A stretch of 38,581 bases of DNA from Chlorobiota bacterium (GTDB lineage Bacteria; Bacteroidota; Ignavibacteria; Ignavibacteriales; Melioribacteraceae), in the NCBI GenBank assembly GCA_013151245.1, contig JAADIR010000011.1:1-38581 (forward strand), given 5' to 3'. The translations under genes were made by a program, and so were the position numbers. This document shows positions 5,712 through 23,041 of the stretch, piece after piece. Under the pieces are notes generated by a model. It did not search any database, was not told the DNA's origin, and saw only the letters and a program-made list of their open reading frames with translations. The first letter of the stretch is position 1; each line of letters opens with the position of its first letter.

Positions 5712-6122
5712 ATGAAAAAGAAAACATTTGTTAAAAAAATAAAGAGCGACCCCGATTTAATGCCGGAGGTCGAAGAATTCGTAATGCGGCACGCCGCGGG
5801 ATGCGGATTTAACGACGAACAGTTGAACAGGTTAGCTTTGTCGGTAGCCGAGGCGGTCTCAAATTCGATAGTTCACGGAAATAAACTCGACGTCAATAAG
5901 AATGTTACGGTTGTTGTTTTTTGGGACGATGAATATTTTACCGTTTCATTTAAAGACGAAGGAACCGGTTTTAACCCGCAGAACGTTCCCAACCCGACTT
6001 TCCCAGAAAATATTTTGAAAGATCACGGTCGCGGAATTCATATTATGAAATCTTTTGTGGACAACGTTGAGTATAATTTTTCGGACGAAGGAACCGAACT
6101 TATTCTTAAAGTGAAAAGATAA
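5712..6122 (+). CDS. RsbW/SpoIIAB-type serine kinase, anti-sigma regulatory factor (orphan)
   Basis: A 136-aa GHKL ATPase (HATPase_c_2). It carries the N box SVAEAVSNSIVHGNK (Glu47, Asn51), the G1 box DEGTGF (82-87) and the G2 box DHGRGIHIMKSF (about 104-114), so ATP binding looks intact. Such proteins bind a sigma factor or response partner and phosphorylate a STAS antagonist. No STAS, sigma or phosphatase gene lies beside it; the nearest STAS gene is about 12 kb away in the signalling block. The AGAAGG stretch abuts the ATG with almost no spacing, so the start is less certain than the domain. It could partner the distant STAS protein or an unlinked one. Confidence 0.85.
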   Translation: MKKKTFVKKIKSDPDLMPEVEEFVMRHAAGCGFNDEQLNRLALSVAEAVSNSIVHGNKLDVNKNVTVVVFWDDEYFTVSFKDEGTGFNPQNVPNPTFPENILKDHGRGIHIMKSFVDNVEYNFSDEGTELILKVKR

Positions 6123-7657: not shown

Positions 7658-8560
7658 TTAAGAAATGGTAAACGAATCAAGAGTTCTCAAATATGATTCC
7701 AGCGAGCTTAAGCCCAGTAAGGGCGTATCGCTTTGCGGGAATATTTGTAAATTATTGTAACTGAAATTCTTTTCGATTTCGGAAACGTCAAAACCGTCGC
7801 CGTATTTATTAATGATGAGATTGTCCGCCGATAAGTTAAAACTATCTAACCGGTCAACAATCAACTTCGATTCCGAGAAGGATAATTTATCCGGATTCAA
7901 AACAATATTTAGCGAGGTTTTCTCTTTATCTTCAAACACAGCTTCAACATTTCTGTAATCTTCTATCTGTTGTTCCAATTTATTTAAGATTTTATCGCGT
8001 TCAATTTCTTTGCTTCCGACTTTTACTTTTGTAATAATTTTTCTTTTTTCAATTATTTTATTTCTCAGTTCCTGCAATTTTTGAAGCCACAACAGAGACA
8101 ACTTCGGAAGCCCGAGGAACTTTAAAGTTAAAGCTGTCGGCGGCATATCAAAGATGATGAGATCCTTGTCGGTAAATTTTTTTCTAATTTCTTTATAAGC
8201 TAAAAGTAAAGCGTACTCTTCAATTCCGGGGGAGTATTTAATTATATCAAAATAATTTTCCAAATTAAACGCCGTTAAATAGGAATAAGATCTTTTAATC
8301 TGAAAGTGAACGTCGGAAAGGTATTTATCTATCCAATAGTCAATATCTACTTCCTTTACCGCAAGATTTTCTTTAACCTTAACGGGTTTTTCCGTGAATT
8401 GAATATTAAAAATATCCGATTGATTGTGAGCCGGGTCCATCGAAACAAGCAGAACCTTTTTCCCGGCGTCGGATAAATAAATTGAAGTTAAAGCGGACGA
8501 GGTTGATTTGCCGACGCCGCCTTTCCCTAGGAAGAATAGATTTTTAGTTTTTAAATTCAT
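7658..8560 (-). CDS. ArsA/GET3-family ATPase
   Basis: A 300-aa soluble ATPase with a deviant P-loop LGKGGVGKST (11-20), switch I DPAHNQSD (42-49) and switch II FDMPPTALTL (about 137-147): the ArsA/GET3/SIMIBI arrangement. There is one ATPase domain, not the two of plasmid ArsA, and no CxxC or arsenite-binding cysteine pattern is visible. A literal arsenite pump is therefore doubtful and a chaperone-like or metal-delivery role is possible. The ORF track starts at 8626, but the extra 22 residues are encoded by an intergenic AT repeat, so I chose the internal ATG (MNLKTKN) just before the P-loop strand. It leads fetA by 15 nt. Confidence 0.82.
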   Translation of the reverse strand: MNLKTKNLFFLGKGGVGKSTSSALTSIYLSDAGKKVLLVSMDPAHNQSDIFNIQFTEKPVKVKENLAVKEVDIDYWIDKYLSDVHFQIKRSYSYLTAFNLENYFDIIKYSPGIEEYALLLAYKEIRKKFTDKDLIIFDMPPTALTLKFLGLPKLSLLWLQKLQELRNKIIEKRKIITKVKVGSKEIERDKILNKLEQQIEDYRNVEAVFEDKEKTSLNIVLNPDKLSFSESKLIVDRLDSFNLSADNLIINKYGDGFDVSEIEKNFSYNNLQIFPQSDTPLLGLSSLESYLRTLDSFTIS

Positions 8561-8576
8561 AGCGCGGTAAACCGCA

Positions 8577-8612
8577 ATTGATAATTGATAATGGAAAATG
8601 TATAATTGGAAT
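8577..8612. repeat. AATTGATAATGGA-type AT-rich intergenic repeat
   Basis: This stretch upstream of the ArsA-like gene reads as repeated AATTGATAAT units. It resembles the AATTGAGAATGGATAATT repeats near 24147, 24392 (reverse) and 32612. Translated in frame it creates the spurious N-terminal extension of the ArsA-like ORF. Confidence 0.5.
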
Positions 8613-8725
8613 TTTGAGCATAACAATTAATGTTTCGGTTTGACTGATTGAATTTCTCATTCATTCCATCATCCATTCATTCATTCTTAAATTAGTTTTC
8701 AAAATTTCTTTACTTAAAAAACAAC

Positions 8726-8772
8726 TTGTCTCGATTTATCCCGATGCTTTTTATCGGGGTGTTTTTCCGAAA
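8726..8772. repeat. CCCGAT...ATCGGG hairpin region between two minus-strand genes
   Basis: A short inverted repeat CCCGAT/ATCGGG with an AT-rich loop sits between the 98-aa gene and the ArsA-like gene. Just upstream (about 8657-8687) there is a run of CATTC-like units. On the coding (minus) strand the hairpin is not followed by an immediate U-run, so it is not a convincing terminator. The 259-nt gap suggests the ArsA-like gene may have its own promoter. Confidence 0.4.
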
Positions 8773-8819
8773 ACGGAATGTTCCATTTATCGGGAAGGAT
8801 TTAACTTGTAATACTATAT

Positions 8820-9116
8820 TTAAATCACGTCAAACGCCGAAAGTAAATCGGAGAGCGGACTTTCGGCGACGTCAACTTTATTTAGCATTATTCTAAAATG
8901 CTTTTCCATTTCCGGCAGCAGATCAAGCGTAATCTGCATTGGCGGCGAGGGAAAGCCGACGAACGCGCCTAGTACAAGCAGCCCGAAAATATTTTCCATT
9001 TCGCCGTATTCGTATTCCAAAGTTTCTACCGCCATATTCCGAGTCGCTTCGCCGTAAGCGTTCCAGCCGTTTTTAATTTTTCCTTTAACTTTACTTAGAA
9101 AATTTTTTTCATCCAT
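8820..9116 (-). CDS. Conserved-looking 98-aa protein of unknown function
   Basis: A 98-aa product with a basic, charged N-terminus, one moderately hydrophobic central segment (IFGLLVLGAFVGFPSPP, about residues 43-59) and an acidic amphipathic C-terminal half. I do not recognise the family. The ATG lies inside the last codons of the 154-aa membrane gene (8-nt overlap), which strongly suggests a translated, coupled gene. It may be a small membrane-associated partner of the 154-aa protein. No catalytic motif is visible. Confidence 0.6.
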   Translation of the reverse strand: MDEKNFLSKVKGKIKNGWNAYGEATRNMAVETLEYEYGEMENIFGLLVLGAFVGFPSPPMQITLDLLPEMEKHFRIMLNKVDVAESPLSDLLSAFDVI

Positions 9117-9573
9117 TTTCGTTTGCCGTATTTTTGTTTATCCTGAAAAGTTTTTTCTCGAATCTGATTTTATTTGCCGAAGGGAAAAAATAGTAAGCCG
9201 AGTAGATTGATAAAAATGCAACAATAATAATGTAAATTTGATCTACGTCAAGAAACAAAGAAACAAATAAGAGATAAGGGGAAACCAAAGCGATCGAAAT
9301 GGTATTTTTTTCAAAAGCGATAAAATCGTTTGTCGGAACGGATTTTAGGTTTTTAACTTTATTAACAAACCAAGTTCTGTAAAAAACGGGCAGACCTACG
9401 CTGAATAAAGCCGCAAAAGAAGCGACAGCTATTGCGGCTATTTTAGAAACCTGAATTCCAAAACCATACCCGAAATATTTTACTAAATATAAAACCCCTA
9501 TTAAAAAGAGCGCGGGCAAAAGTTTTAAAAGATATAAATTCAGCAATTCCTTTTTGATATTGTTATTAGCCAT
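9109..9573 (-). CDS. Four-helix membrane protein of unknown function (154 aa)
   Basis: A 154-aa protein with four predicted transmembrane segments (about residues 15-33, 42-66, 92-109 and 111-130) and a short basic C-terminal tail. The start is well supported by GGAGGG 4 nt before the ATG. No family is recognised. It lies 75 nt downstream of cstA and overlaps the 98-aa gene by 8 nt, so cstA, this gene and the 98-aa gene may be co-transcribed. A role with CstA is possible but rests only on position. Confidence 0.62.
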   Translation of the reverse strand: MANNNIKKELLNLYLLKLLPALFLIGVLYLVKYFGYGFGIQVSKIAAIAVASFAALFSVGLPVFYRTWFVNKVKNLKSVPTNDFIAFEKNTISIALVSPYLLFVSLFLDVDQIYIIIVAFLSIYSAYYFFPSANKIRFEKKLFRINKNTANENG

Positions 9574-12423: not shown

Positions 12424-13041
12424 TCAATTCAAAACAACGCTTACCGCAAACAGAAGCTGGGCGGCGTAATAAGTCGGGAGAATAATTAATTGCGCAAACT
12501 TGAATTTTTTAACGAACTTATTCCACGCAAGAACCGAATCGGAAATTGTGAAAAGAATTGCGGCTAAAAAGATTATCGGGGAATTATCATTGCCGGATGT
12601 GAAAAATAAATTAGCCGCGCTCCAAAGCATAAGGGAAATCACGGTTACGTAAACGGCAATAGGAATAACCATTTTTGATTTCAAGGATTTTTTAATAATC
12701 AAAAAATAGCTTCCGGTCAAAAGAAAAATAGGAACGGCGCTCAAAAAAATGAAATTTTCCGTTTCGTTTAAGAACGCGATAAAATAAAAAACGTGCGAAA
12801 CCAAAAACGCCGCAACGCCGTATAAAAATCTTTTTTCGGAAAGCAAAAACAAATCGCCCGCCAAAGAAAAGAAAAGCGCCGCCATTATAAAAAATCTGTA
12901 ATCTGAATTAAAATCAAAAATCAATAAAAACAAAAGAAGAGAGAAGACCGGAATCCCTTTTGTTATTTTGTAAAGAACGGCGGCGCCGGTTTGAGCGGCA
13001 TAAACCGCGATTGCGGAGAGAATTATGTAAATAAAAATCAT
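12424..13041 (-). CDS. Lysoplasmalogenase (YhhN/TMEM86 family)
   Basis: A 205-aa protein with about eight transmembrane segments. It shows YhhN-family signatures: FFSLAGDLFLL (about residues 57-67), the FLVSHVFYF segment, and the C-terminal AILFTISDSVLAWNKF and TYYAAQLLFA. TMEM86/YhhN proteins hydrolyse the vinyl-ether bond of lysoplasmalogen in the membrane; activity here is inferred. The ATG overlaps the stop of the PDZ-phosphatase gene as ATGA (4 nt), so the two are translationally coupled. That coupling is unusual and suggests membrane-lipid status is tied to the phosphatase signal. Family assignment is good; the substrate is not proven. Confidence 0.8.
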   Translation of the reverse strand: MIFIYIILSAIAVYAAQTGAAVLYKITKGIPVFSLLLFLLIFDFNSDYRFFIMAALFFSLAGDLFLLSEKRFLYGVAAFLVSHVFYFIAFLNETENFIFLSAVPIFLLTGSYFLIIKKSLKSKMVIPIAVYVTVISLMLWSAANLFFTSGNDNSPIIFLAAILFTISDSVLAWNKFVKKFKFAQLIILPTYYAAQLLFAVSVVLN

Positions 13042-15596
13042 TGTCCCAAATACTTCACTAAAACTAATGTAATGTCGTCGCTCTGCTGATCCGATTGGCG
13101 AAAGTCGTAAAGCGCGTCGAGGATTTTTTGATTTATTATCTCGACGTTCTTCTCTTTGTTTTCTTTCAATATTGTTTTCAAAGGTTCAACGCCGAATAAC
13201 TCGCCGTTCGGCGAAATGTCTTCGGTAATGCCGTCGGAATAGAAAGCGAATAAATTGTCGGAATCCAGCGGAATTTCAATCTGTTCCAGAGTCGAATCAA
13301 AAACTTTTCCACGCTCAAGCCCAACGCCCAAACCTTTCGGCACAAATGTTTCGGCGCGATTGCCGGATATCTGGATTAACGGCGTATGCCCGGCGCGGCA
13401 AAAGAGGAGCGTGCGTTTCGTTAGATCGAAAAGTCCCACCGAAACGGTGATGAACCAGTTCCTTTCAATTTCGCTGAAGATTTTTTTGTTTACCTCAATC
13501 AAAACTTCGCGCGGGTCGGCGGCTTTTTCGGCGAAGAGGCGCATCATTGTCTGCAGCTTTGTCATATAGTAAGACGCCGCAAGCCCTTTGCCCGAAACGT
13601 CTCCGACGATTACGAAAAATTTATCGTCCGCAATTTTTATAATGTCGTAATAATCGCCTCCAACTTGGAGAGCCGGAATCATCGTTCCGGAAATTTCCAT
13701 TTGCGGAAAAATCGGAATTTCTTTCGGGAGAAGACTGCGCTGAATTTTTTTCGCGTTCTCAAGGTCTCTGTCCATTTTTACTTTTTCCGATTCCGATTCG
13801 TACAAACGGGCGTTTTCTATTGAAACCGCTATCTGATTTGCCACCGCCGACAAAAGCTCCAAATCCTTTCCGGCAAATTGCGACCCGGAATGTTTCAACC
13901 CGAATAAAACAAGTCCGATAACTTTTGATTTAATTAAAAGAGGAATGATTGTGAAAATCTCTTGTTTCTTTAGTTCGCCCGATATGGCGGGAAAAACCGT
14001 TTCGAAATCGTTTTGGTCGATAGCCGGAAGTTGTTTCAGTTTTTTCTTCTTATCGACAAAACGGAGTATTCTCATCTGATAATTTTTGAAGGATAATTTT
14101 TCGCCGTTGTAGCCGACGGAAAAATATGATCTGCATTCATTGCTGTTGCCGCTGCGGAGAACAAGTCCGGCTTTCTGAAGTCTCAGCGAATCGATGAATA
14201 TTTTTTTAATCGAATCGAGAATCGGATCGAGTTTTACTATTGTCGATACGTCGCGGCTGAATTTCACAAGAACTTCCTGAAAGGCAAACTGTTCGGGGTA
14301 AAACCTGCGCGTAAGGAGATCCTGAAATTTATCTTTTGTCGATTGAAAGACGAGCGCAAAACCGATAAAAATAATCGCCGCGAAAATTCCCTGATAATCG
14401 GAGCTGATTGCCTGACTGATTGACTGACCTAAAAAATAGATCAGAAAAAAATAAATTCCGGCAATTGAAAGAGTCGCCGTTCCATAGATAATTGTATTTT
14501 TGAAAACGTCGCTAACGTCCATCAGCGAATATTTAAATACCGAATAACCGAACGAAATAGGAACAAAAGTAATTAAAACAATCGGCAAAAAATATTCGGG
14601 CGAATTGAAAATTGCCGCGCGCGGAAGCGTGTTGGCGACAATCAGAAAATAAGCCAGCGCGCCCAAACCGAGCATATACCCAACGAGAATAATAAAAATT
14701 GAATTTCTTTCGCGCTTGGTTTTTAATTTGCTGTAACTTTTAAACAATGCAATTATGCCGGTAATGTTTCCGGCAATTCCCAAAACGCTCATAACGGAGA
14801 GCAGCAACATCTTTTCATAAGTAAATGATTTTGCATCCCAAGCTTCAAAAAGGAGCGACAAAAGAAATAAAACCGTTGGAATTGCATAAAGAATTTTTAT
14901 CGTCCATTTGCGCGTAATGATTTTTCTTTCGAGCGGAAAAACCCAAAAGAAGTGGACGACAACGAAGGGCAAAAACGCAAAGCCGAAAAGTCTTAAAAGA
15001 ATAAGGAAATTCAGAATCGAATCCGGAATGTAATCGAGCTTCATAAAATCAATTGTATTGAACGGCAGCGATGTGTTAGTGAAAATCAACATCACGCCAA
15101 TAAAAAAGAAAAGCCGCTGCGTTCTTCCGTAAGGGTTTGCCGCAATAACCATTGTCGCTATTATCATCCAAATAAACGCAAACAAAGCAAACGCCAATCT
15201 GGTAATGTTAATCAGTTTCTTTACTTCCACTTTTGTTTCAATCGTTTGTCCGTTCCGCTCAATTGTATAAACGGCTGAATCTCCGGCGGCTACTTGATCG
15301 AGCACATAGGTTGCAACATAAGTGTTTTTTACGGGAACGCCGTTTATCGCCACAAGTTTATCGCCGTCCCTAACTCCGGCGTTCCAGGTAACTCCTTCGA
15401 ATTTGACAAAGTCGAAATATACTTCAAGAGTGTCGGGCGCAATTCTTTTTGGAATCCACAAGCATTCGTCGTTTGACGTAGGGAGGATTTCCACCAAACT
15501 ATAAATTATTCCCAAACCCAAAATGATTGAGAGAAGAGAAATAAAAAGGAAAATCCTTTTAATGTTTTGTTCTATGTAGAATTTAATTTTTTTCAC
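13038..15596 (-). CDS. Membrane PDZ-GAF-SpoIIE (PP2C) phosphatase
   Basis: An 852-aa sensor phosphatase. Order: N-terminal TM (about residues 13-35); a PDZ-like domain (about 50-125, AGVRDGDKLVAINGVPV), apparently outside the cytoplasm; a block of membrane helices (about 130-425); a GAF domain (about 450-600, with IIPLLIKSKVIGLVLFG); a coiled linker; then a SpoIIE/RsbU phosphatase. Metal-binding motifs are intact: GGDYYD (about 642), GDVSGKG (about 662), FYSDGITE (about 785) and SDDIT (about 837). Such enzymes dephosphorylate STAS antagonists. The start is GTG at 15594-15596. It is translationally coupled to the lysoplasmalogenase gene and lies 163 nt after a second phosphatase. The signal sensed by the PDZ domain is unknown. 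Confidence 0.9.
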   Translation of the reverse strand: MKKIKFYIEQNIKRIFLFISLLSIILGLGIIYSLVEILPTSNDECLWIPKRIAPDTLEVYFDFVKFEGVTWNAGVRDGDKLVAINGVPVKNTYVATYVLDQVAAGDSAVYTIERNGQTIETKVEVKKLINITRLAFALFAFIWMIIATMVIAANPYGRTQRLFFFIGVMLIFTNTSLPFNTIDFMKLDYIPDSILNFLILLRLFGFAFLPFVVVHFFWVFPLERKIITRKWTIKILYAIPTVLFLLSLLFEAWDAKSFTYEKMLLLSVMSVLGIAGNITGIIALFKSYSKLKTKRERNSIFIILVGYMLGLGALAYFLIVANTLPRAAIFNSPEYFLPIVLITFVPISFGYSVFKYSLMDVSDVFKNTIIYGTATLSIAGIYFFLIYFLGQSISQAISSDYQGIFAAIIFIGFALVFQSTKDKFQDLLTRRFYPEQFAFQEVLVKFSRDVSTIVKLDPILDSIKKIFIDSLRLQKAGLVLRSGNSNECRSYFSVGYNGEKLSFKNYQMRILRFVDKKKKLKQLPAIDQNDFETVFPAISGELKKQEIFTIIPLLIKSKVIGLVLFGLKHSGSQFAGKDLELLSAVANQIAVSIENARLYESESEKVKMDRDLENAKKIQRSLLPKEIPIFPQMEISGTMIPALQVGGDYYDIIKIADDKFFVIVGDVSGKGLAASYYMTKLQTMMRLFAEKAADPREVLIEVNKKIFSEIERNWFITVSVGLFDLTKRTLLFCRAGHTPLIQISGNRAETFVPKGLGVGLERGKVFDSTLEQIEIPLDSDNLFAFYSDGITEDISPNGELFGVEPLKTILKENKEKNVEIINQKILDALYDFRQSDQQSDDITLVLVKYLGQ

Positions 15597-15615
15597 TATT
15601 TATAATTTTTTATCA

Positions 15616-15707
15616 CGGTCATTGCCAAGGAGTCCCGATTCATCGGGACGACTGAAGTAATCTCTCATAGATTGCTTCATCCCTAAAAACCGGATTCGCA
15701 ATGACCG
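15616..15707. repeat. Multi-branched inverted-repeat element (GGTCATTGC family)
   Basis: CGGTCATTGC (15616-15625) pairs perfectly with GCAATGACCG (15698-15707). Inside are the hairpin GTCCCGAT/ATCGGGAC (15632-15649) and the hairpin GAAGTAATCT/AGATTGCTTC (15654-15678, one G:U). The result is a closed three-way-junction shape in the only gap between two phosphatase genes. A second, larger copy lies at 26664-26805. It resembles the widespread GTCATTGCGA-type intergenic repeats of many bacteria. Confidence 0.75.
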
Positions 15708-15759
15708 GATACTTTTATAATTATCTTCTTGTATGAGTTAAATTTCTCATGAATGTTCG

Positions 15760-17439
15760 CTATTTGATTTTCAATACAAGCGCGGTGATATCGTCGGATT
15801 GAACGGCTCCGACCGTATGTTTCATCACATCGTTCATTATTACGTTTAACAAATCGTCCGCCGTTTTATCGCAATTAGAGAGCGCAAGTTTTTCCAATCT
15901 TTCGTCGGAATATTCTTCAAAATTTACGTTCATCGCTTCGGTAATGCCGTCGGTGAACGCTACGAGAACGTCTCCGCTTTGCAGCTTAATCTCGGCGGCT
16001 TCATAAGGAATTATCGTCTGCATCACGCCGAGAATCATTCCTCCTTTTTTCAGATGTTCGATCTCTCCGTTTCTGCAGAGAAGAGGAGGATTGTGTCCGG
16101 CGTTTACATATTCAAGTTTCATCTCTTTCCGGTTGATAATGCCCCAGAAAAAAGTGATGAAGCTGCCGTCCGTTGTGTTTTCGGAGACCAAATCGTTTAT
16201 CAAGTTAGACGCTTTGTCAAGCGTAATGTTCTGTTTCCAAATTGATTTTAAGAACGCCTGAACGTTTGCCATCAGCAAAGCCGCTTGAACTCCTTTGCCC
16301 GAAACGTCGCCGATTGCAATCAATGTTCGGTCGGAATCGAGTTCTAAAATATCGTAATAATCTCCGCCGACTTGCTTTGCCGAGTTATTCACGGCGGCTA
16401 TTTTATATTCTTCATAAACGGGAATTTTATTCGGCAGCAGACTTTTTTGAATTTTCCGCGCGGTTTCAAGTTCTTTTTCCAGTTTTTCTTTTTCCAGAGC
16501 TTCTTCAAAGAGCAGAGCGTTTTCTATTGAAATTATCGCCAAACTTCCCAGCGACGAAACAAATTCGATATCCGATTTTAAGTACGGAAGTTTATTGCCG
16601 CGCGCGCCCAGCAATATCAAACCTTTTGTTTTATTTTTAATTCTCATCGGGAGAATAAGTTCAATCCCGACGTCCGCAATGCTTGGAAATATTTCCTTTA
16701 TTTCATCGCATGAAATCGGCGCGTCTATTTTTTCGAAAGGATTTTCATCCAGAAATTTCAGAACGTTTTCCTCGGGAAATTTCGAATCGAGAATTTGAGG
16801 TTTGTCCGCCGCGGCGGAAAGTATCGCATACTTCGAGACGAGCATTTGCCCGATAATTGAATAGACGAGAAGTTTGTTAACCGTGCCGACCTCAAGCGCT
16901 CCGCTGAATTCTTTGCTCAAATCGAAAAGAGCGCTGAGTCTGTTGACTTTGGAATCGAGCTCTTTGTTAATTGTTTTTATTTTTTCAACCGTTAAAGAAT
17001 TTTCGATTGCCGTTGCGCCCGTGTTTGCTATTGTTCCGATGAATTCCATATCCGATTCAGAGTAGGGCATGTTTGTTAATTTTGATCCGAGAGCGATAAT
17101 TCCAATTACGCCGTTGTGCGAAATAAGTTTTTGAGTATATACTAATTTATTATCCGCGAGAAACCTTTTCAGTCGTTCGGAAAGTTCGCCGTCGATTAAA
17201 CTTTCTTTTGGAAAATCATTTATTCTTTCGGATGGAATTCCTTTAACGAGCTTCGGTTCCAGAATTCCGTCGTTTCCTTTCATGGCAATAATTCCGCGCG
17301 TTGTAAGGAGCTTTCCGAAAAGGGTGAGTAGAATGTTATTTAACGTAAACCCTACGTCGAGACTTGAATTTATCAGGTTGCTGAAATCCACGAAAGCCGA
17401 GAAATTTCGTAAAGCCGCATTTTGGTCTGATAAATTCAT
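15760..17439 (-). CDS. Cytoplasmic double-GAF SpoIIE (PP2C) phosphatase, RsbU-like
   Basis: A 559-aa soluble protein with two GAF-like domains (about residues 8-150 and 165-320), separated by a coiled segment (EKIKTINKELDSKVNRLSA). A second coil leads into a SpoIIE phosphatase. Motifs GGDYYDI (about 356), GDVSGKGVQAA (about 376), NAGHNPP, FTDGITEAM (about 495) and SDDIT (about 547) are all intact. No membrane segment is visible, so it senses a cytoplasmic ligand or partner. It starts 2 nt after the stop of the RsbW-like gene, so the STAS, kinase and phosphatase genes form a tight set. Its expected substrate is the phosphorylated STAS protein encoded two genes upstream; this is inferred from context. 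Confidence 0.92.
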   Translation of the reverse strand: MNLSDQNAALRNFSAFVDFSNLINSSLDVGFTLNNILLTLFGKLLTTRGIIAMKGNDGILEPKLVKGIPSERINDFPKESLIDGELSERLKRFLADNKLVYTQKLISHNGVIGIIALGSKLTNMPYSESDMEFIGTIANTGATAIENSLTVEKIKTINKELDSKVNRLSALFDLSKEFSGALEVGTVNKLLVYSIIGQMLVSKYAILSAAADKPQILDSKFPEENVLKFLDENPFEKIDAPISCDEIKEIFPSIADVGIELILPMRIKNKTKGLILLGARGNKLPYLKSDIEFVSSLGSLAIISIENALLFEEALEKEKLEKELETARKIQKSLLPNKIPVYEEYKIAAVNNSAKQVGGDYYDILELDSDRTLIAIGDVSGKGVQAALLMANVQAFLKSIWKQNITLDKASNLINDLVSENTTDGSFITFFWGIINRKEMKLEYVNAGHNPPLLCRNGEIEHLKKGGMILGVMQTIIPYEAAEIKLQSGDVLVAFTDGITEAMNVNFEEYSDERLEKLALSNCDKTADDLLNVIMNDVMKHTVGAVQSDDITALVLKIK

Positions 17440-17441
17440 CG

Positions 17442-17873
17442 TTAAATATATTTAATGAGTTTAAGTTGATTTTGTCCGCCGGGGAGCGCGGAATATTTTA
17501 CTTTGTCCATCAATTCTTTCATCAGAAACATTCCCAATCCGCCGTGTTTTCTTTCTTTTACATATTTTTTCAAGTCCGGCGGCGGAACTGAACTCGGGTC
17601 GAAATGTATTCCGGAATCAACAATTGTGACTTCAAGTTTATCTTTGAAATATTTGACGTTAATATTTATATCCTCGGAAGGGGACGAACCGTACGCGTGT
17701 TTAATAATATTCGTACACGCTTCGTCAACCGATAAAATTATTTTATCGACTAAATCTTTTGGCAGCGACAACTCATCTGCAATGCCCGAAAGAAAGTTCC
17801 TTATTTCAATCAAATTTTCCGTGGAGCTTTTTACGGTGAGACGCCTGCTGAATATCGCTGATTTCTTATTCAA
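17442..17873 (-). CDS. RsbW/SpoIIAB-type anti-sigma serine kinase
   Basis: A 143-aa GHKL-fold protein. N box SVDEACTNIIKHAYG (Glu51, Asn55) and G2 box KHGGLGMFLMKE (109-120) are intact. G1 reads VDSGIHFDP (85-93), lacking the second glycine, as many RsbW proteins do. It is expected to phosphorylate the neighbouring STAS antagonist and to hold a target, classically a sigma factor. The start is TTG at 17871-17873, overlapping the STAS stop by 4 nt (TTGA), so the pair is translationally coupled and probably made in matched amounts. No SigB-type sigma gene is adjacent; only the ECF factor at 21613 lies in the same block. Confidence 0.9.
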   Translation of the reverse strand: MNKKSAIFSRRLTVKSSTENLIEIRNFLSGIADELSLPKDLVDKIILSVDEACTNIIKHAYGSSPSEDININVKYFKDKLEVTIVDSGIHFDPSSVPPPDLKKYVKERKHGGLGMFLMKELMDKVKYSALPGGQNQLKLIKYI

Positions 17874-18229
17874 TTCTTTCCTTGTTCGTTAAATTTTGCG
17901 AGCGCTTCTTTTTCATCTTTAAAAAACTCGTATAACATTGGAAATCCGAGCAGATCGAAGATGTTGTAAACAGATTCGGAGAGGTTGGTGAATTTAATAT
18001 CGCCGTTATTTTCTCTCATGGTTTCCACGTATGCCATAAAAACGCCCAAGCCGGCGCTGCTTATGTATTGAAGTTCCGTGAAACTAACGACAATATTGAA
18101 TTTTCCCTCTTCTATGAATTTGTTGAAAACGTTTTCCAATTGGGGAGCCGTGTGCGCGTCAAGATAACCGCTTAAATCAATTATGTTAACTTTGCCCTCT
18201 TCCCTCGTCTGAATAGTTAATTCAGCCAT
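17870..18229 (-). CDS. STAS-domain anti-sigma factor antagonist (SpoIIAA/RsbV-like)
   Basis: A 119-aa single STAS domain. The phosphorylation loop reads LQYISSAGLGVF, and alignment on the GLG places the acceptor at Ser58, the same position as in B. subtilis SpoIIAA. The SSAG form (in place of DSSG) is common in spirochaete and Bacteroidota antagonists. Unphosphorylated, it should bind the RsbW-type kinase encoded immediately downstream (4-nt overlap) and free its target. The ATG has GGAG 6 nt upstream. It lies 15 nt after a phosphatase gene. It is the only STAS gene in the window against three candidate phosphatases and two kinases. Confidence 0.93.
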   Translation of the reverse strand: MAELTIQTREEGKVNIIDLSGYLDAHTAPQLENVFNKFIEEGKFNIVVSFTELQYISSAGLGVFMAYVETMRENNGDIKFTNLSESVYNIFDLLGFPMLYEFFKDEKEALAKFNEQGKN

Positions 18230-18244
18230 TCAATACTCCATTAT

Positions 18245-20272
18245 TTATATCGATTTTTTCCATTTAATTAACACGTAAGTGATATCGTCATATTGAGAAC
18301 TCAAACGCGTATATTCCGATATTCCTTTCATAATACTGCTTGACAATTCCGCGACCGAAGCTCCGGGATTAACGAGTATAAACTCTTTTAATTTTTCAGT
18401 TCCAAGAAGATTAAGATTTTCATCATGCGCTTCGGTAACGCCGTCGGTAAAAAGAATTACAATATCGTTATTATTTAGTTGAAAATCCAATTCCTCAATC
18501 GATTCGTCGAAAATTCCGGTATAGTTTATTGCCAGCCCCAAACCTCCCGGCGCATATTCGGTAATTTCATTGCCGGAAAGTTTTAACATAGGCATGTGTC
18601 CCGCGCGGACAAATTTCATCTTTCCCGATTTCATATCCAGCAAACCGCAGCTTGCGGTAATAAAACTTTTTTTGTCTATTCGTCCTTTAAGAATATTATT
18701 GGTTTTTATTAAAAGGTCTTTGGGGGTCTCAGCCACGCTGACAAGCGAGCTGATTATTCCGCGCAGTTCCGCCATAATAAATGCTGCGGAAATTCCTTTG
18801 CCCGAAACGTCTGCAATTATAAAAAAGAACTTATCGTTGGGCAGAAGGAAGAAATCGTAATAATCGCCGCCGACTTCAAAAGCCGGAAGGAAACCGAACG
18901 CAACGTCAATATTTTTGTGTTTGGGCGATTCGGAAGGCACAATTTTATATTGCACTTCGCGCGCAACGTCAAGTTCCTTCTGCAGCCGTTCTTTCTCGAT
19001 TGATTTTTTAATCAACTCCGCATTCTCAAAAGCCACCGCAACGTAATCGGCAAACGCTTTGATCGATTGAATATCGTCGTCGTCAAAACCGAATTTCTCT
19101 TTTTTTGCAATGAACAAAAACCCGATTAAAGCGCCGTGAATTTTTATAGGCACAAAAGCGGCGGTATTGATTTGGTTAACCTGTTCAATTGCAACTTCCG
19201 TGAAATCGTCAATCGATTTATAATCGTCGGGAAGAATCATTCCGGTAATGCGGTCCGCTTCTTTAAAGCCGATGCCGTTTACCGATCTTATTTCCAAATC
19301 GTCAACGGTTTTTACCGCAAGCCAGGAAATATCGGAATTGCAGACTTTAACGGATAATGAAGTTACGGTTTTTAAAAGTTCTTCTTCGTCAAAGGCGCGC
19401 GTAATTAATTTGCTTAAATCAATTAAAGAGGAAACTTCCTCCGCTTTCCGGTCGAACGCCTCGGCGGTAGGAAGATGAAAAAGCGTCGTAAAAAAAATAA
19501 CCGAGAAATAAATTACGCCGTATAAATTTACCAGCAATAAATATGAAGGCAACGATTTTGCAAAACGCCCTAAAAGATTCATTGTAAAATCGGAATCCAT
19601 CGAAACGATTAATATCGCGGTAAAAAGGGAAAGAAGTAAAATTGAAAAGAAAAGAAGCGTAATTTTTTCTTTTTTGTTAAGAAACGCAATCCATGCCACG
19701 CGCAAGGAATTTATTGAAATTAAAATAATTGTGACTATGAAAAAAGCGGTTTCAACAAAAGAGAAAACGTCGCCGGAAAAAGAATTCATCGTCAAAGCAA
19801 ACATCGAGAGCATAAAAAAGAACAGCATTACATTAAAATAATTTCGCGGGTCTTTTTTCTGCTGCAATAAGAAAAGCGCTCTGAAACTTGCAAGCACAAA
19901 AGATGCGCTAAGAATAAAAATGAAACTTACCAGCGTAAAAATTATATTAATGATTAGCGAAGCCGAAGCGGTAAACCGAGTCCAATCGTCAACCGCGGCG
20001 TTGGCAATAGCGACCACGAAAATATTAAATGCAATAATAATTCCCGTGTTAAACGCAATCGACATCGGTTTTATTCTTTTTTCGGAAAGCGCGGCAATAA
20101 AATAAAGAAGCCAAAAATATGCCGTCAAAACAAATAAAACTTCATTGGCAATTAGAATTCCGGTTTTGTCGGTAAATTGAAAAACAATTCTGAAAAGAAA
20201 AAAAACAATCGATAAAACAACCGCATGTTCAAGCCGCTTATTGGCGGGCAAACTTCTAAATGGTATTTTCAT
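18245..20272 (-). CDS. Membrane GAF-SpoIIE (PP2C) phosphatase
   Basis: About 675 aa. An N-terminal membrane domain of roughly eight helices (about residues 15-260, 7TM-like) is followed by a GAF domain (about 280-425, ending AFADYVAVAFENAELI), a coiled linker (KERLQKELDVAREVQ) and a SpoIIE phosphatase. Motifs: GGDYYDF (about 465), ADVSGKG (about 485; Ala replaces the usual Gly but the Asp metal ligand is kept), RAGHMP, FTDGVTE (about 605) and DDIT (about 664). The ORF track uses TTG at 20281; I prefer the ATG three codons in, giving an 11-nt gap to the upstream gene. It links an integral-membrane signal to the STAS protein 15 nt downstream. Confidence 0.9.
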   Translation of the reverse strand: MKIPFRSLPANKRLEHAVVLSIVFFLFRIVFQFTDKTGILIANEVLFVLTAYFWLLYFIAALSEKRIKPMSIAFNTGIIIAFNIFVVAIANAAVDDWTRFTASASLIINIIFTLVSFIFILSASFVLASFRALFLLQQKKDPRNYFNVMLFFFMLSMFALTMNSFSGDVFSFVETAFFIVTIILISINSLRVAWIAFLNKKEKITLLFFSILLLSLFTAILIVSMDSDFTMNLLGRFAKSLPSYLLLVNLYGVIYFSVIFFTTLFHLPTAEAFDRKAEEVSSLIDLSKLITRAFDEEELLKTVTSLSVKVCNSDISWLAVKTVDDLEIRSVNGIGFKEADRITGMILPDDYKSIDDFTEVAIEQVNQINTAAFVPIKIHGALIGFLFIAKKEKFGFDDDDIQSIKAFADYVAVAFENAELIKKSIEKERLQKELDVAREVQYKIVPSESPKHKNIDVAFGFLPAFEVGGDYYDFFLLPNDKFFFIIADVSGKGISAAFIMAELRGIISSLVSVAETPKDLLIKTNNILKGRIDKKSFITASCGLLDMKSGKMKFVRAGHMPMLKLSGNEITEYAPGGLGLAINYTGIFDESIEELDFQLNNNDIVILFTDGVTEAHDENLNLLGTEKLKEFILVNPGASVAELSSSIMKGISEYTRLSSQYDDITYVLIKWKKSI

Positions 20273-20283
20273 TTGCTTCAAGA

Positions 20284-21504
20284 TTATTTCTCTTTATTGT
20301 TTTTTTTCGCGGGGGCGTTCTTCTTCCCCCACTTTTTTATTAATTCGTTCATTTTAGCGACCCACTCTGCGGAATCTTCTTTTTCGTAATTGCGCGAGAT
20401 GGAATCAATCAGAGAACCGATTCCTTCAAGGTCTGAAATATTTGAAAAGTTTGCAAAATTAAAATCTGAATTTAACATCTTTTCTAATTTGTGAAGTCCT
20501 TCCTCTGAAGTAATTGAAAACCGACTGTTTCCGTTTTCATGCCGTAAAGAGATTGTGTGGCTGCCGGAATTAATTGTTATTTGTATTTGTTTTACCATAT
20601 CGGTCGCGAGCTTCAAGTAATTTTGAAGCGAGTCTTCTTCCGCGGAAACGCGCGATTCATTAAAAACGATTTTTGAGTGCGTGGGAAGAATTTTATACCA
20701 TTCAATTCCAAGATTATTTGAATCTTTATGGTTGTCCGTTAAAACTTCCAAACTCACCCCTCCTTTTTCTCTGCTGTTTAACGTAACGGAAATTTCATTC
20801 CTCGCTTTATTATTACCGTTTGAATTTTTTACCTCGGCAACCACAACCGTATCGGGCGTCAGTATAAGAAACTTTTCAGGTTTATTCCGCATTGCGGTCA
20901 TCTCCGTCATATGTTTCCGGCGCAAATAACCGGGCGGAAATATCTCGTCGGTAAGCGACGGACGAATCTCGGATAAATATGAAAATAATTTTATTAAAGT
21001 CTTTTGACGGATAGAAACAAGCCGGGGACTAATTGCAAGTTCGTCTTCGTTTCCTTTTAAAATATTTTCGTTTAATTCTTTTCCGCATTCGTGAAGAACC
21101 TTGTCGATCGCTTTCTTTTCCGCTTCCGTTACTTGTAGATATTTCAGAAAGTTTTTATAACTTCCCAACTCTTCTTTATAATCAGCCGTTCGAATATTGT
21201 AGGAATAAACGCTGGGGCTTCTTTCCTGAATTTTTAATACTCTGTCATTTTTTCCGTTAACGGGAATTTGATTGTGCATCAGAAAATGAAAAACTTCTTC
21301 GTTTGTAAGCGGTTGACCGCCGAACAAAGGTTTGAAGTCAATCAATTCAAAGTTTGAGAGGAAAGTCGTTTTCTCATTAAGCAGAGAAGTAACGTTATTG
21401 TTTTTGAAGACGAACATCAAAATGATTGAAAGAGTTAGAGCGGAAATAAGAAGCAGGTTCTTTCTGAAAAATTCGACGGCAATATTTTTTTTTGTATCGG
21501 TCAT
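20284..21504 (-). CDS. Single-pass membrane protein of unknown family, candidate anti-sigma factor
   Basis: A 406-aa protein with a short basic cytoplasmic start, one transmembrane helix (about residues 15-31, LLLISALTLSIILMFVF) and a large, mostly hydrophilic remainder. It ends in a Lys/Asn-rich tail (GKKNAPAKKNNKEK). No zinc-binding HxxxCxxC anti-sigma motif, FecR motif or enzyme motif is visible, and I do not recognise the family. It lies 108 nt downstream of the ECF sigma gene and about 12 nt before a phosphatase gene. That is the usual place of an anti-sigma factor, hence the proposal. The predicted N-in topology leaves only about 15 residues in the cytoplasm, which argues against a classical sigma-binding domain. 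Confidence 0.6.
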   Translation of the reverse strand: MTDTKKNIAVEFFRKNLLLISALTLSIILMFVFKNNNVTSLLNEKTTFLSNFELIDFKPLFGGQPLTNEEVFHFLMHNQIPVNGKNDRVLKIQERSPSVYSYNIRTADYKEELGSYKNFLKYLQVTEAEKKAIDKVLHECGKELNENILKGNEDELAISPRLVSIRQKTLIKLFSYLSEIRPSLTDEIFPPGYLRRKHMTEMTAMRNKPEKFLILTPDTVVVAEVKNSNGNNKARNEISVTLNSREKGGVSLEVLTDNHKDSNNLGIEWYKILPTHSKIVFNESRVSAEEDSLQNYLKLATDMVKQIQITINSGSHTISLRHENGNSRFSITSEEGLHKLEKMLNSDFNFANFSNISDLEGIGSLIDSISRNYEKEDSAEWVAKMNELIKKWGKKNAPAKKNNKEK

Positions 21505-21612
21505 ATACTTTAGAATTGAAAACTTGTTTCGTTCCTTTTATCGTGAATAATAAATTCTTACGGCAATTATGCTAATTTCAAATCTTTCTTTTCTAATTTA
21601 CGGTTCGCCGCG

Positions 21613-22206
21613 TTATAAGTTCAATTCCTTTCTGTACGGTTCAAGTATTATCTTAAGACTTTCTCGCGCTCTGAAAATTCTTGATTTTACCGTTCCGACT
21701 TCGCATCCCAACTTCTCGGCTATTTCTTTGTAACTAAATCCGTCAATATCCCGTAAGACGAGCGGTTCTTTCAATTTTTCGGGCAGCTTTTCAATTGTTC
21801 TTCTTACAAGAGCGGGAATATCAATGCTGTCCGTTCGCATTGAAGAACTGTGATTGTATTCCGAATTTTTTATCGGAACGAAAATGCTCCGCACTTTCTT
21901 CTTCCGAAGATAATCGCGGCACTTGTTGACGGTAATTCTGTAAAGCCAAGTCGTAAATTTCGATTCGAACCGGAAATCTTTCATCTTATGAAATACGCTG
22001 ATGAAAACGTCCTGCGAAATATCGTCGATAAACTCAGTGTCGCCCAAAGTAAGATAGACTAGATTCCTCACTTTATCTTTGTGTTTAAAGACAAGCCTGG
22101 AATAAGCCTGATCGCTACCGTCATTAAACGCGCGGATCAACGCGTAATCTTCTTCTTCGCTTTGAGCTTTCAAATCCTTTATTTCATTATTTGAGTTATC
22201 GTTCAT
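21613..22206 (-). CDS. ECF-type RNA polymerase sigma factor
   Basis: A 197-aa sigma-70 family protein lacking regions 1 and 3. Region 2 spans about residues 35-102, with DDISQDVFISVFHKM and FTTWLYRITVNKCRDYLRKKK. Region 4 spans about 135-185, with LPEKLKEPLVLRDIDGFSYKE and GTVKSRIFRARESLK as the -35 recognition helix-turn-helix. Length and layout fit an RpoE-like group IV factor. An N-terminal acidic extension of about 25 residues precedes region 2. It heads a minus-strand block containing an unknown membrane protein and a partner-switch set, so it may be a controlled target or the activator of the block. The exact ECF group cannot be assigned from reading. Confidence 0.94.
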   Translation of the reverse strand: MNDNSNNEIKDLKAQSEEEDYALIRAFNDGSDQAYSRLVFKHKDKVRNLVYLTLGDTEFIDDISQDVFISVFHKMKDFRFESKFTTWLYRITVNKCRDYLRKKKVRSIFVPIKNSEYNHSSSMRTDSIDIPALVRRTIEKLPEKLKEPLVLRDIDGFSYKEIAEKLGCEVGTVKSRIFRARESLKIILEPYRKELNL

Positions 22207-22392
22207 CAGTTAGACGATTAGTTAAATCTCAAGTTCCATTTTATTTTTGTGAAATAAATAGTAAACCTAAAATATAATTATTTATTACTATAATTGTTAG
22301 AATCCTTTTTCCTTTTTCCTTTTTTATTTAGGAATTGGACGAGGATTATTACGTTAAACGTAGAAACGAAAAACGAAATTGCGGAATGTAGC

Positions 22393-22433
22393 GCAGATTG
22401 CTTAGTCCCGATTTATCGGGACGGGCAATCTGC
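22393..22433. repeat. Nested palindrome, GCAGATTGC family copy 1
   Basis: GCAGATTGC (22393-22401) and GCAATCTGC (22425-22433) form a perfect outer stem. GTCCCGAT and ATCGGGAC (22405-22422) form a perfect inner stem with a 2-nt loop. It matches the copy at 38218-38260, which has a paired change in the outer stem. Reduced versions lie at 32654-32673 and 38313-38344. Confidence 0.8.
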
Positions 22434-22451
22434 AGCTTAAACACGCCGTGC

Positions 22452-22483
22452 AAGAGGTAAGAAGGGAGAGGGAAGAGAATTGG
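22452..22483. repeat. Purine-rich AAGAGGTAAGAAGGGAGAGG repeat
   Basis: This purine tract is nearly repeated at 26556-26590 (AAGAGGTAAAAAGGGAGAGG), both followed by AATTGG. A looser match lies beside the fetB remnant near 11970-12015. No coding role is seen. Confidence 0.5.
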
Positions 22484-22552
22484 TAGCCGCAAGCTTCAGC
22501 TTGCGCGGCGCGTTGTTTTCACGACAAATCATCTTTCACAAATCGCCATTAA

Positions 22553-22741
22553 CCCCGCGCTTCAGCGCAGGGCAAGCGCAAAAACAACGCTCAAAAGAAA
22601 CCCCAAAGGCTTGCCTGCCGCAAGGCATGGGTGAAATTATTGTAATAACAGCGCCAAAAAAGTAAAACCCCGAAGGGGTGAAATTATTGTAACAACGACA
22701 TAACCCAAAATAAGCGAAACTGCGAAGCAGTGATATTATTG
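22553..22741 (+). repeat. Cluster of GAA-loop hairpins with constant ATTATTG tail
   Basis: At least three plus-strand units share a hairpin followed directly by TGA(A/T)ATTATTG. CCCC-GAA-GGGG precedes TGAAATTATTGTAA (22668-22692). ACTGC-GAA-GCAGT precedes GATATTATTG (22719-22741). A more irregular stem precedes TGAAATTATTGTAA at 22632-22645. The stem bases change in pairs while loop and tail stay constant. The pattern resembles REP-type repeats mobilised by RAYT transposases, but no such gene is in the window. Confidence 0.7.
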
Positions 22742-22805
22742 CCAATGAAGGCGACGAATAATGTCATTCCTACGGGGTTCTTTTTTTGTTTTCTTTCTTC
22801 ATATT

Positions 22806-22831
22806 TTACAATAATATCACTCCTTCGGAGT
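22806..22831 (-). repeat. Inverted copy of the GAA-loop hairpin repeat
   Basis: On the minus strand this reads ACTCC-GAA-GGAGT followed by GATATTATTGTAAAA. It is the same unit as the plus-strand cluster at 22553-22741, in opposite orientation. Facing units of this kind are typical of REP-like clusters. Confidence 0.75.
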
Positions 22832-23041
22832 TTGAAAAGATATTGTTCATTCGTCCTTCCGAGGAGGAGTCCGGCGGCTGCCGGACGACGACGCGGCAAT
22901 CTGCAAGTTTGTGTAGAAAATAGAACGCGGATTTTTTATGATAATTATGATTTTCACGGATTTCATCGTTAAACAAACCATTGCGAAAACCATCGCTTCA
23001 TAGTTAAACTCCAAAAGACGCTGCCCCGAAGACAAATATTT

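What the first reader, a model, noticed from the sequence alone, without database searches (positions are those of the whole stretch)
13038..22206. ECF sigma factor embedded with a three-phosphatase partner-switch block
The same strand carries, in order: an ECF sigma factor, an unknown membrane protein, a membrane GAF-SpoIIE phosphatase, a STAS antagonist, an RsbW-type kinase, a double-GAF SpoIIE phosphatase, and a PDZ-membrane-GAF-SpoIIE phosphatase with a lysoplasmalogenase. Three differently equipped phosphatases appear to converge on one STAS protein. Classical RsbU/V/W systems control a SigB-type sigma factor, and I see none. The ECF factor may be the output, directly or through the unknown membrane protein. 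Motifs are read directly; the wiring is inference.
Basis: partly seen in the sequence, partly recalled or inferred. Interest (0 to 1): 0.72.

Follow-up and report, generated by a model that had tools for sequence, protein, structure and literature searches.

The report
Sigma-driven partner-switch operon, beheaded anti-sigma
A whole order of environmental bacteria keeps a signalling operon in which a stress-type sigma factor appears to switch on its own operon, and in the branch studied here the protein that should restrain that sigma factor has lost exactly the part that grips it, so how the sigma factor is held in check has become an open, testable question.

Summary
In detail: the eight genes are there, in the stated order and strand. 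The block is not a local curiosity. sig-(membrane protein)-phosphatase-STAS-RsbW-phosphatase-phosphatase is conserved across the order Ignavibacteriales (sigma in 154 of 164 genomes).

Three things change the reading. (1) The "unknown membrane protein" descends from the sigma factor's own anti-sigma factor. Orthologues in Ignavibacteriaceae and in outgroup orders carry an N-terminal anti-sigma domain (profile hits RsiW, RseA, MucA); the window's clade lost that domain once, and at least four lineages then lost the whole gene. (2) An ECF promoter, GGAAC-N16-CGTCTA, lies directly before sig in nearly every genome and is usually its only exact copy in the genome, so the sigma factor most likely transcribes its own operon. 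(3) In Ignavibacteriaceae the partner switch has its own promoter region and survives where sigma plus anti-sigma are lost.

The arrow is therefore probably reversed: sigma drives the switch. An RsbW takeover of the sigma factor, which would be new, is not excluded, but coevolution tests give it no support. No SigB-type factor is present. The switch's output remains unknown. Verdict: new variant of a known kind.

The parts
22213..22237 (-). ECF-type promoter GGAAC-N16-CGTC(TAA): -35 at 22237-22233, -10 at 22216-22213, 6 nt before the sig start codon
   Evidence: Upstream of sig in 124 of 134 genomes with at most one mismatch, 0 of 115 controls; usually the only exact copy in the genome
21613..22206 (-). 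ECF sigma factor (sig), 197 aa
   Evidence: Pfam Sigma70_r2 and r4_2; orthologue in 154 of 164 Ignavibacteriales genomes, one copy each
20284..21504 (-). Beheaded anti-sigma factor ('stub'): short basic N-terminus, one TM helix (about 17-35), poorly conserved periplasmic part; no anti-sigma domain
   Evidence: Homologous, syntenic proteins with an N-terminal anti-sigma domain in Ignavibacteriaceae and outgroup orders; domain profile hits RsiW, RseA, MucA; model of the stub
18245..20281 (-). ph1: multi-TM, GAF, SpoIIE (PPM) phosphatase
   Evidence: Pfam SpoIIE and GAF_2; conserved position
17870..18229 (-). STAS anti-anti-sigma-type protein, candidate phospho-Ser58 (YISSAGLG in 120 of 121 orthologues)
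   Evidence: Pfam STAS, TIGR00377 above cut-off; motif count
17442..17873 (-). RsbW-type serine kinase, HATPase_c_2
   Evidence: Pfam HATPase_c_2; N-box DEACTN conserved
15760..17439 (-). ph2: soluble GAF(-GAF)-SpoIIE phosphatase
   Evidence: Pfam SpoIIE and GAF
13038..15596 (-). ph3: PDZ, multi-TM, GAF, SpoIIE phosphatase
   Evidence: Pfam SpoIIE, GAF_3, weak PDZ; conserved position
12424..13041 (-). YhhN/lysoplasmalogenase-family membrane protein; overlaps ph3 here but not part of the conserved core
   Evidence: Pfam YhhN; found in 4 of 40 related loci

Best explanation
This is an order-wide (Ignavibacteriales) signalling operon in which the ECF sigma factor is the transcriptional driver of a partner-switch module rather than its established output. 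Ancestrally the sigma factor formed an ordinary autoregulated pair with a membrane anti-sigma factor. A separately transcribed partner-switch module came to lie beside it. In the branch that holds the window the anti-sigma factor lost its sigma-binding domain once, the two units became one tightly packed operon behind the sigma factor's own promoter, and the remaining stub gene was later lost at least four times. Proposed working: a basal supply of sigma reads GGAAC-N16-CGTCTA, raising sigma and with it the whole switch (positive feedback); three phosphatases with different sensors (membrane, soluble GAF, PDZ-membrane) dephosphorylate STAS Ser58; unphosphorylated STAS captures the RsbW kinase; the freed client, not identified, is the output. 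Shown by sequence comparison: conserved block, promoter, identity of the stub, order of losses, operon packing. Inferred: that the sigma factor really uses this promoter, that the phosphatases act on this STAS, and that the output is not mainly the sigma factor.
For: Conserved block, tight packing (gaps about -4 to 25 nt in the window's family). ECF promoter before sig in 124/134 genomes with at most 1 mismatch versus 0/115 in a control region; strict motif usually unique in 3-5 Mb genomes. Outgroup orders have sigma plus classical anti-sigma and the same motif but no switch genes nearby. The anti-sigma domain is present in 55 of 55 Ignavibacteriaceae orthologues and 0 of 66 in the other two families, and the latter form one clade on the sigma tree (SH-aLRT 98.8). 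All 19 structural hits of the domain model are anti-sigma domains, though each with a weak E-value. In Ignavibacteriaceae the switch is set apart by a gap of about 209 nt with its own conserved elements and persists where sigma and anti-sigma are both gone (G050, G469, G472). In the window's clade no locus with the switch lacks sigma, while 10 lack only the stub, at least 4 losses. Sigma-stub coevolution is seen with the domain (partial 0.26, p 0.002) and not without it (0.05, p 0.24), and sigma-RsbW shows none anywhere.
Against: A self-activating sigma factor with no inhibitor should lock on, which argues that something still restrains it, and RsbW is the obvious candidate in the operon. The coevolution test has low power (the known STAS-RsbW pair is detected only in Ignavibacteriaceae) and slow proteins share residual correlation. 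The motif search covered exact sites only, so further targets may exist. No transcription start was measured. A few genomes of the window's family have degenerate motifs (G007, G028).
Confidence: 0.52

Rival explanations
1. RsbW has taken over as the anti-sigma factor of an ECF sigma factor. The three phosphatases dephosphorylate STAS, STAS captures RsbW, and the freed sigma factor activates its own operon. The old anti-sigma factor then became dispensable, lost its sigma-binding domain and later the whole gene.
For: Sigma stays with the switch after losing its anti-sigma domain and, in 10 genomes, the whole stub gene; an autoregulated sigma factor needs a brake; RsbW is the only known anti-sigma-type protein in the operon.
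Against: Sigma-RsbW has the lowest or near-lowest partial coevolution in every set; no conserved residue of RsbW switched at the branch where the domain was lost, and sigma shows only conservative changes; in Ignavibacteriaceae RsbW and the switch persist without sigma. [quoted passage not shown]
Confidence: 0.25
2. The stub still controls sigma or the switch indirectly: its periplasmic part senses a signal and acts through the membrane phosphatase ph1 encoded next to it, so the former anti-sigma factor has become a sensor subunit.
For: Stub and ph1 show the strongest partial coevolution in the window's clade (0.46, p 0.0005) and a strong one in Ignavibacteriaceae (0.40); with ranks the membrane part of ph1 keeps it in the window's clade (0.29, p 0.002); adjacent, nearly touching genes.
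Against: Both are fast-evolving proteins, which inflates such correlations; rank-based values in Ignavibacteriaceae are not significant (0.13, p 0.057); the stub was lost at least four times while ph1 stayed.
Confidence: 0.15
3. Frozen synteny: sigma and switch lie side by side without functional coupling.
For: In Ignavibacteriaceae they are separate transcription units and sigma plus anti-sigma can be lost alone.
Against: Retention across three families and 65 of 68 genera; fusion into one packed operon behind the sigma promoter in two families.
Confidence: 0.06
4. A classical Rsb system for a SigB/SigF-type sigma factor encoded elsewhere in the genome.
For: RsbU/V/W-like parts are all present.
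Against: Only two region-3 sigma factors in the genome, both RpoD-like.
Confidence: 0.02

Closest known systems
ECF sigma factor with class I membrane anti-sigma factor (RpoE-RseA, SigW-RsiW, AlgU-MucA)
   Same: ECF sigma followed by a single-TM membrane protein; ECF-type autoregulatory promoter; Ignavibacteriaceae and outgroup orthologues carry the anti-sigma domain
   Different: In the window's clade the sigma-binding domain is absent and the gene is dispensable; a partner-switch module is fused downstream
RsbU/RsbV/RsbW-SigB partner switching of Bacillus
   Same: SpoIIE phosphatase, STAS with candidate phosphoserine, RsbW-type kinase in one operon
   Different: No SigB-type sigma factor; three differently equipped phosphatases; the linked sigma factor is ECF and its direct control by RsbW is unsupported
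Bordetella btr locus: ECF BtrS, anti-sigma BtrA, switch BtrU/V/W (PMC7498569)
   Same: An ECF sigma factor, its anti-sigma factor and a partner switch encoded together
   Different: BtrA is a secreted anti-sigma factor, not a beheaded one; BtrU/W are thought to govern secretion; different gene order and unrelated lineage
EcfG-NepR-PhyR general stress response of Alphaproteobacteria (PMC8103513)
   Same: An ECF sigma factor under partner switching
   Different: PhyR is a sigma-mimicking response regulator; no STAS, RsbW or SpoIIE proteins
Rhodobacter capsulatus RbaV/RbaW/RbaY (PMC3999984)
   Same: Rsb-type switch without a SigB factor
   Different: No linked ECF sigma factor; [quoted passage not shown]

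Membership tests
ECF (group IV) sigma factor | Regions 2 and 4 only, no region 3 | tested here: met
   Sigma70_r2 and Sigma70_r4_2 only, 197 aa
ECF (group IV) sigma factor | Autoregulatory promoter of the GGAAC...CGTC type | tested here: met
   sequence only, no transcription assay
Class I membrane anti-sigma factor (window protein 21504-20284) | N-terminal cytoplasmic anti-sigma domain | tested here: not met
   Absent in the window and in all 66 orthologues of its two families, present in 55 of 55 Ignavibacteriaceae
Class I membrane anti-sigma factor (window protein 21504-20284) | Descent from, and synteny with, such a factor | tested here: met
   Homologous over TM and proximal periplasmic part, same position next to sig; domain of relatives matches RsiW, RseA, MucA
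Rsb/SigB partner-switching system | SpoIIE phosphatase, STAS antagonist with phosphoserine, RsbW kinase | tested here: met
   (motifs; no activity measured)
Rsb/SigB partner-switching system | Cognate SigB/SigF-type sigma factor with region 3 | tested here: not met
   Only two RpoD-like factors in the 93% complete genome
Rsb/SigB partner-switching system | RsbW binds the linked sigma factor | tested here: inconclusive
   No coevolution signal, low power; complexes could not be modelled here
EcfG-NepR-PhyR system | NepR and PhyR proteins beside the ECF gene | tested here: not met
   No such domains in the block
Bordetella btr-type locus | Link to a type III secretion system | not tested
   None seen in the genes read around the block; the rest of the genome was not searched for it

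The most novel reading that the evidence does not exclude
An RsbW-type kinase has replaced the lost anti-sigma domain and directly sequesters an ECF sigma factor, so that a STAS/SpoIIE partner switch controls an ECF sigma factor: a mode of control not found in the literature searched here, with the evolutionary intermediates (domain kept, domain lost, gene lost) still alive.
Probability: 0.25. Interest if true: 0.82.

Novelty: new variant of a known kind. Interest (0 to 1): 0.62.

Why it matters
ECF sigma factors are normally defined by the anti-sigma factor beside them. Here a whole clade keeps the sigma factor and its promoter but has removed the sigma-binding domain, in surviving steps, after a partner-switch module was fused behind it. 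This makes two questions directly testable: how an autoregulated ECF sigma factor is restrained without its anti-sigma factor, and whether an RsbW-type kinase can control an ECF sigma factor. It also identifies the function-less membrane protein of these operons and warns that gene order alone may give the wrong direction of wiring.

Tried and rejected
Second sigma target: a strict promoter match lies 44 nt before a GntR-SpoIIE gene on contig C44. Orthologues showed that the conserved sequence there is better read as a TTGACA/TTGATT-N17-TATATT promoter with a palindrome ACTGTATA-N9-TATACAGT, a likely GntR operator, so it was dropped as evidence. The relaxed motif gives 21 sites in the genome, mostly inside genes, against 9 for the reversed control. 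Fold search with the stub model: no match. Rfam: nothing in 8-24 kb. SigB-type sigma elsewhere: none. Residue-level coevolution was not attempted (about 100 paired sets, too few). Partial-correlation tests were used only as weak evidence because fast and slow proteins group by rate. A Bacteroidota-type TTG-TAnnTTTG promoter in the Ignavibacteriaceae gap: not found.
Full report
What is there. The sigma factor has regions 2 and 4 only. The three SpoIIE proteins keep the PPM motifs; the STAS protein has S58 in YISSAGLG; the RsbW-type protein is a HATPase_c_2. The 406-aa membrane protein matches no Pfam or NCBIfam family. Genome-wide, only two sigma factors with region 3 exist and both are RpoD-like, so no SigB-type factor is seen (genome 93% complete). 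The genome has 12 SpoIIE proteins, several other RsbW-like proteins and at least six STAS proteins, so exclusive convergence on one STAS cannot be assumed.

How widely it is conserved. A homologue of the membrane protein was found in 52 of 58 relatives. Reading about 120 loci shows the order sig-(membrane protein)-ph1-STAS-RsbW-ph2-ph3 throughout three families of one order. Record titles of the nearest named genomes are Melioribacteraceae and other Ignavibacteriales; that the family holding the window is Melioribacteraceae and the domain-bearing family Ignavibacteriaceae is read from those titles. The sigma factor, one copy per genome, was found in 154 of 164 genomes of the order (107 of 109 of high quality). 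YhhN is an occasional neighbour (4 of 40 loci). Most relatives also carry a second STAS gene, transcribed away from sig and followed, where read, by purA and a histidine kinase; in the window's genome that unit lies on another contig.

The membrane protein is a beheaded anti-sigma factor. In Ignavibacteriaceae the same gene is longer (about 500-560 aa) and begins with a domain of the type LSAYxDGELSxxExxxxExxL. Outgroup orders have the sigma factor followed by a membrane protein with the same kind of domain and no switch genes nearby. A profile of these N-termini finds RsiW (E 9.5e-5), then RseA and MucA, as the best three of 177,635 solved-structure sequences; 18 of 20 members match zf-HC2 weakly; and all 19 Foldseek hits of its model are anti-sigma domains (each E-value is above 0.3, so the consistency rather than any one hit is the evidence). 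The domain is present in 55 of 55 Ignavibacteriaceae orthologues and in 0 of 66 of the other two families. Those two families form one clade on a rooted sigma tree (SH-aLRT 98.8), so one loss is enough. In ten intact loci of the window's family the gene is gone altogether and sig abuts ph1 (gaps 1-151 nt), at least four losses on the tree.

The sigma factor most likely drives its own operon. Directly before sig lies GGAAC-N16-CGTCTAA, with at most one mismatch in 124 of 134 genomes against 0 of 115 in a control region. In 14 genomes of 3-5 Mb the strict motif usually occurs once, at this place. The outgroups share it. In the window it spans 22237-22213, 6 nt before the start codon. Genes of the block are tightly packed in the window's family. 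In Ignavibacteriaceae, by contrast, sig and the anti-sigma gene overlap by 4 nt, and about 209 nt with conserved elements of their own and an excess of terminator-like hairpins separate them from ph1: two units there, one here.

Direction of wiring. In Ignavibacteriaceae three genomes have lost sigma and anti-sigma together and kept the switch (G050 and G469, both near complete, and G472, 78% complete), so the switch has a use without this sigma factor. In the window's clade no locus with the switch lacks sigma, while the stub is lost repeatedly (these counts are not independent of phylogeny). Distance-matrix partial correlations give sigma-stub coevolution where the domain exists (0.26, p 0.002) and not where it is lost (0.05, p 0.24); STAS-RsbW, a control, is detected in Ignavibacteriaceae (0.46-0.48) but not in the window's clade; sigma-RsbW is at or near the bottom in every set. 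RsbW has no conserved residue that switched between the two groups (0 of 47), sigma 8 of 90, all conservative. These tests are weak but all point away from RsbW having newly acquired the sigma factor. I therefore favour sigma as driver of the switch (0.52), with RsbW takeover as the main rival (0.25).

Relation to known systems. ECF regulation by partner switching is known for EcfG-NepR-PhyR (PMC8103513), and the Bordetella btr locus has an ECF factor, its anti-sigma factor and BtrU/V/W together, with BtrU/W assigned to secretion control (PMC7498569). RsbW proteins were used as negative controls in an ECF/anti-sigma coevolution study as never described to interact with ECFs (PMC7406223). No paper in the held library joins Ignavibacteria, sigma factors and partner switching; most subscription papers, and the ECF reclassification paper, are not held, so this is not proof of novelty. 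The parts are known kinds; the beheaded anti-sigma factor in a sigma-driven partner-switch operon is a new variant.

Limits. Everything rests on sequence comparison. No transcription, phosphorylation or binding was measured; complexes could not be modelled; weak promoter targets elsewhere are not excluded; the output of the switch is unknown.

Noticed in passing
window 22206-22237: The sig start codon lies 6 nt after the CGTC -10 element, and at a similar short distance in most relatives, so mRNA from this promoter would be nearly leaderless, or the true start is further in.
   Followed up: partly
L139 6328-9395 (G000 contig C254); L133 5743-8728: A second STAS protein (FMNSSGLG or FMNSTGLG in 119 of 119) forms a unit with purA and a membrane histidine kinase, usually divergent from sig but separated from it in the window's genome.
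   Followed up: partly
L161 434-1459 and 1501-1527 (G000 contig C44): A GntR-HTH fused to a SpoIIE phosphatase, with a conserved palindrome ACTGTATA-N9-TATACAGT in its promoter in four genomes; it mimics an ECF site.
   Followed up: yes
Ignavibacteriaceae loci, gap between the anti-sigma gene and ph1, e.g. L294, L062: A strongly conserved element ATCCT-N9-CCGTTTAT followed by TTTACA-N17-TAATTT-like sequence, probably the switch's own promoter with an unknown activator site.
   Followed up: partly
f1 loci, 100-200 nt upstream of sig (e.g. L034, L043, L066): A further conserved stretch (ATAATTATATT ... AAGTTATTGAATC ... TGTAAAAATAAAG) between sig and the divergent STAS gene, not assigned.
   Followed up: no
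L149 2-4470 (G000 contig C4): A second partner-switch cluster with SpoIIE proteins (one 7TMR-DISM-like), a STAS and an RsbW-like protein.
   Followed up: no
window 5712-6122 (+): A lone RsbW-like ATPase next to an outer-membrane-type protein gene.
   Followed up: no
window 7658-9573 (-): An ArsA-type ATPase followed by a small protein with a weak cory-CC-star match and a small membrane protein without Pfam match.
   Followed up: no
window 22400-22960: About 0.9 kb upstream of sig rich in hairpins and repeats (inverted pair 22717-22741/22809-22833), where relatives have the divergent STAS gene; probably the rearrangement site.
   Followed up: partly
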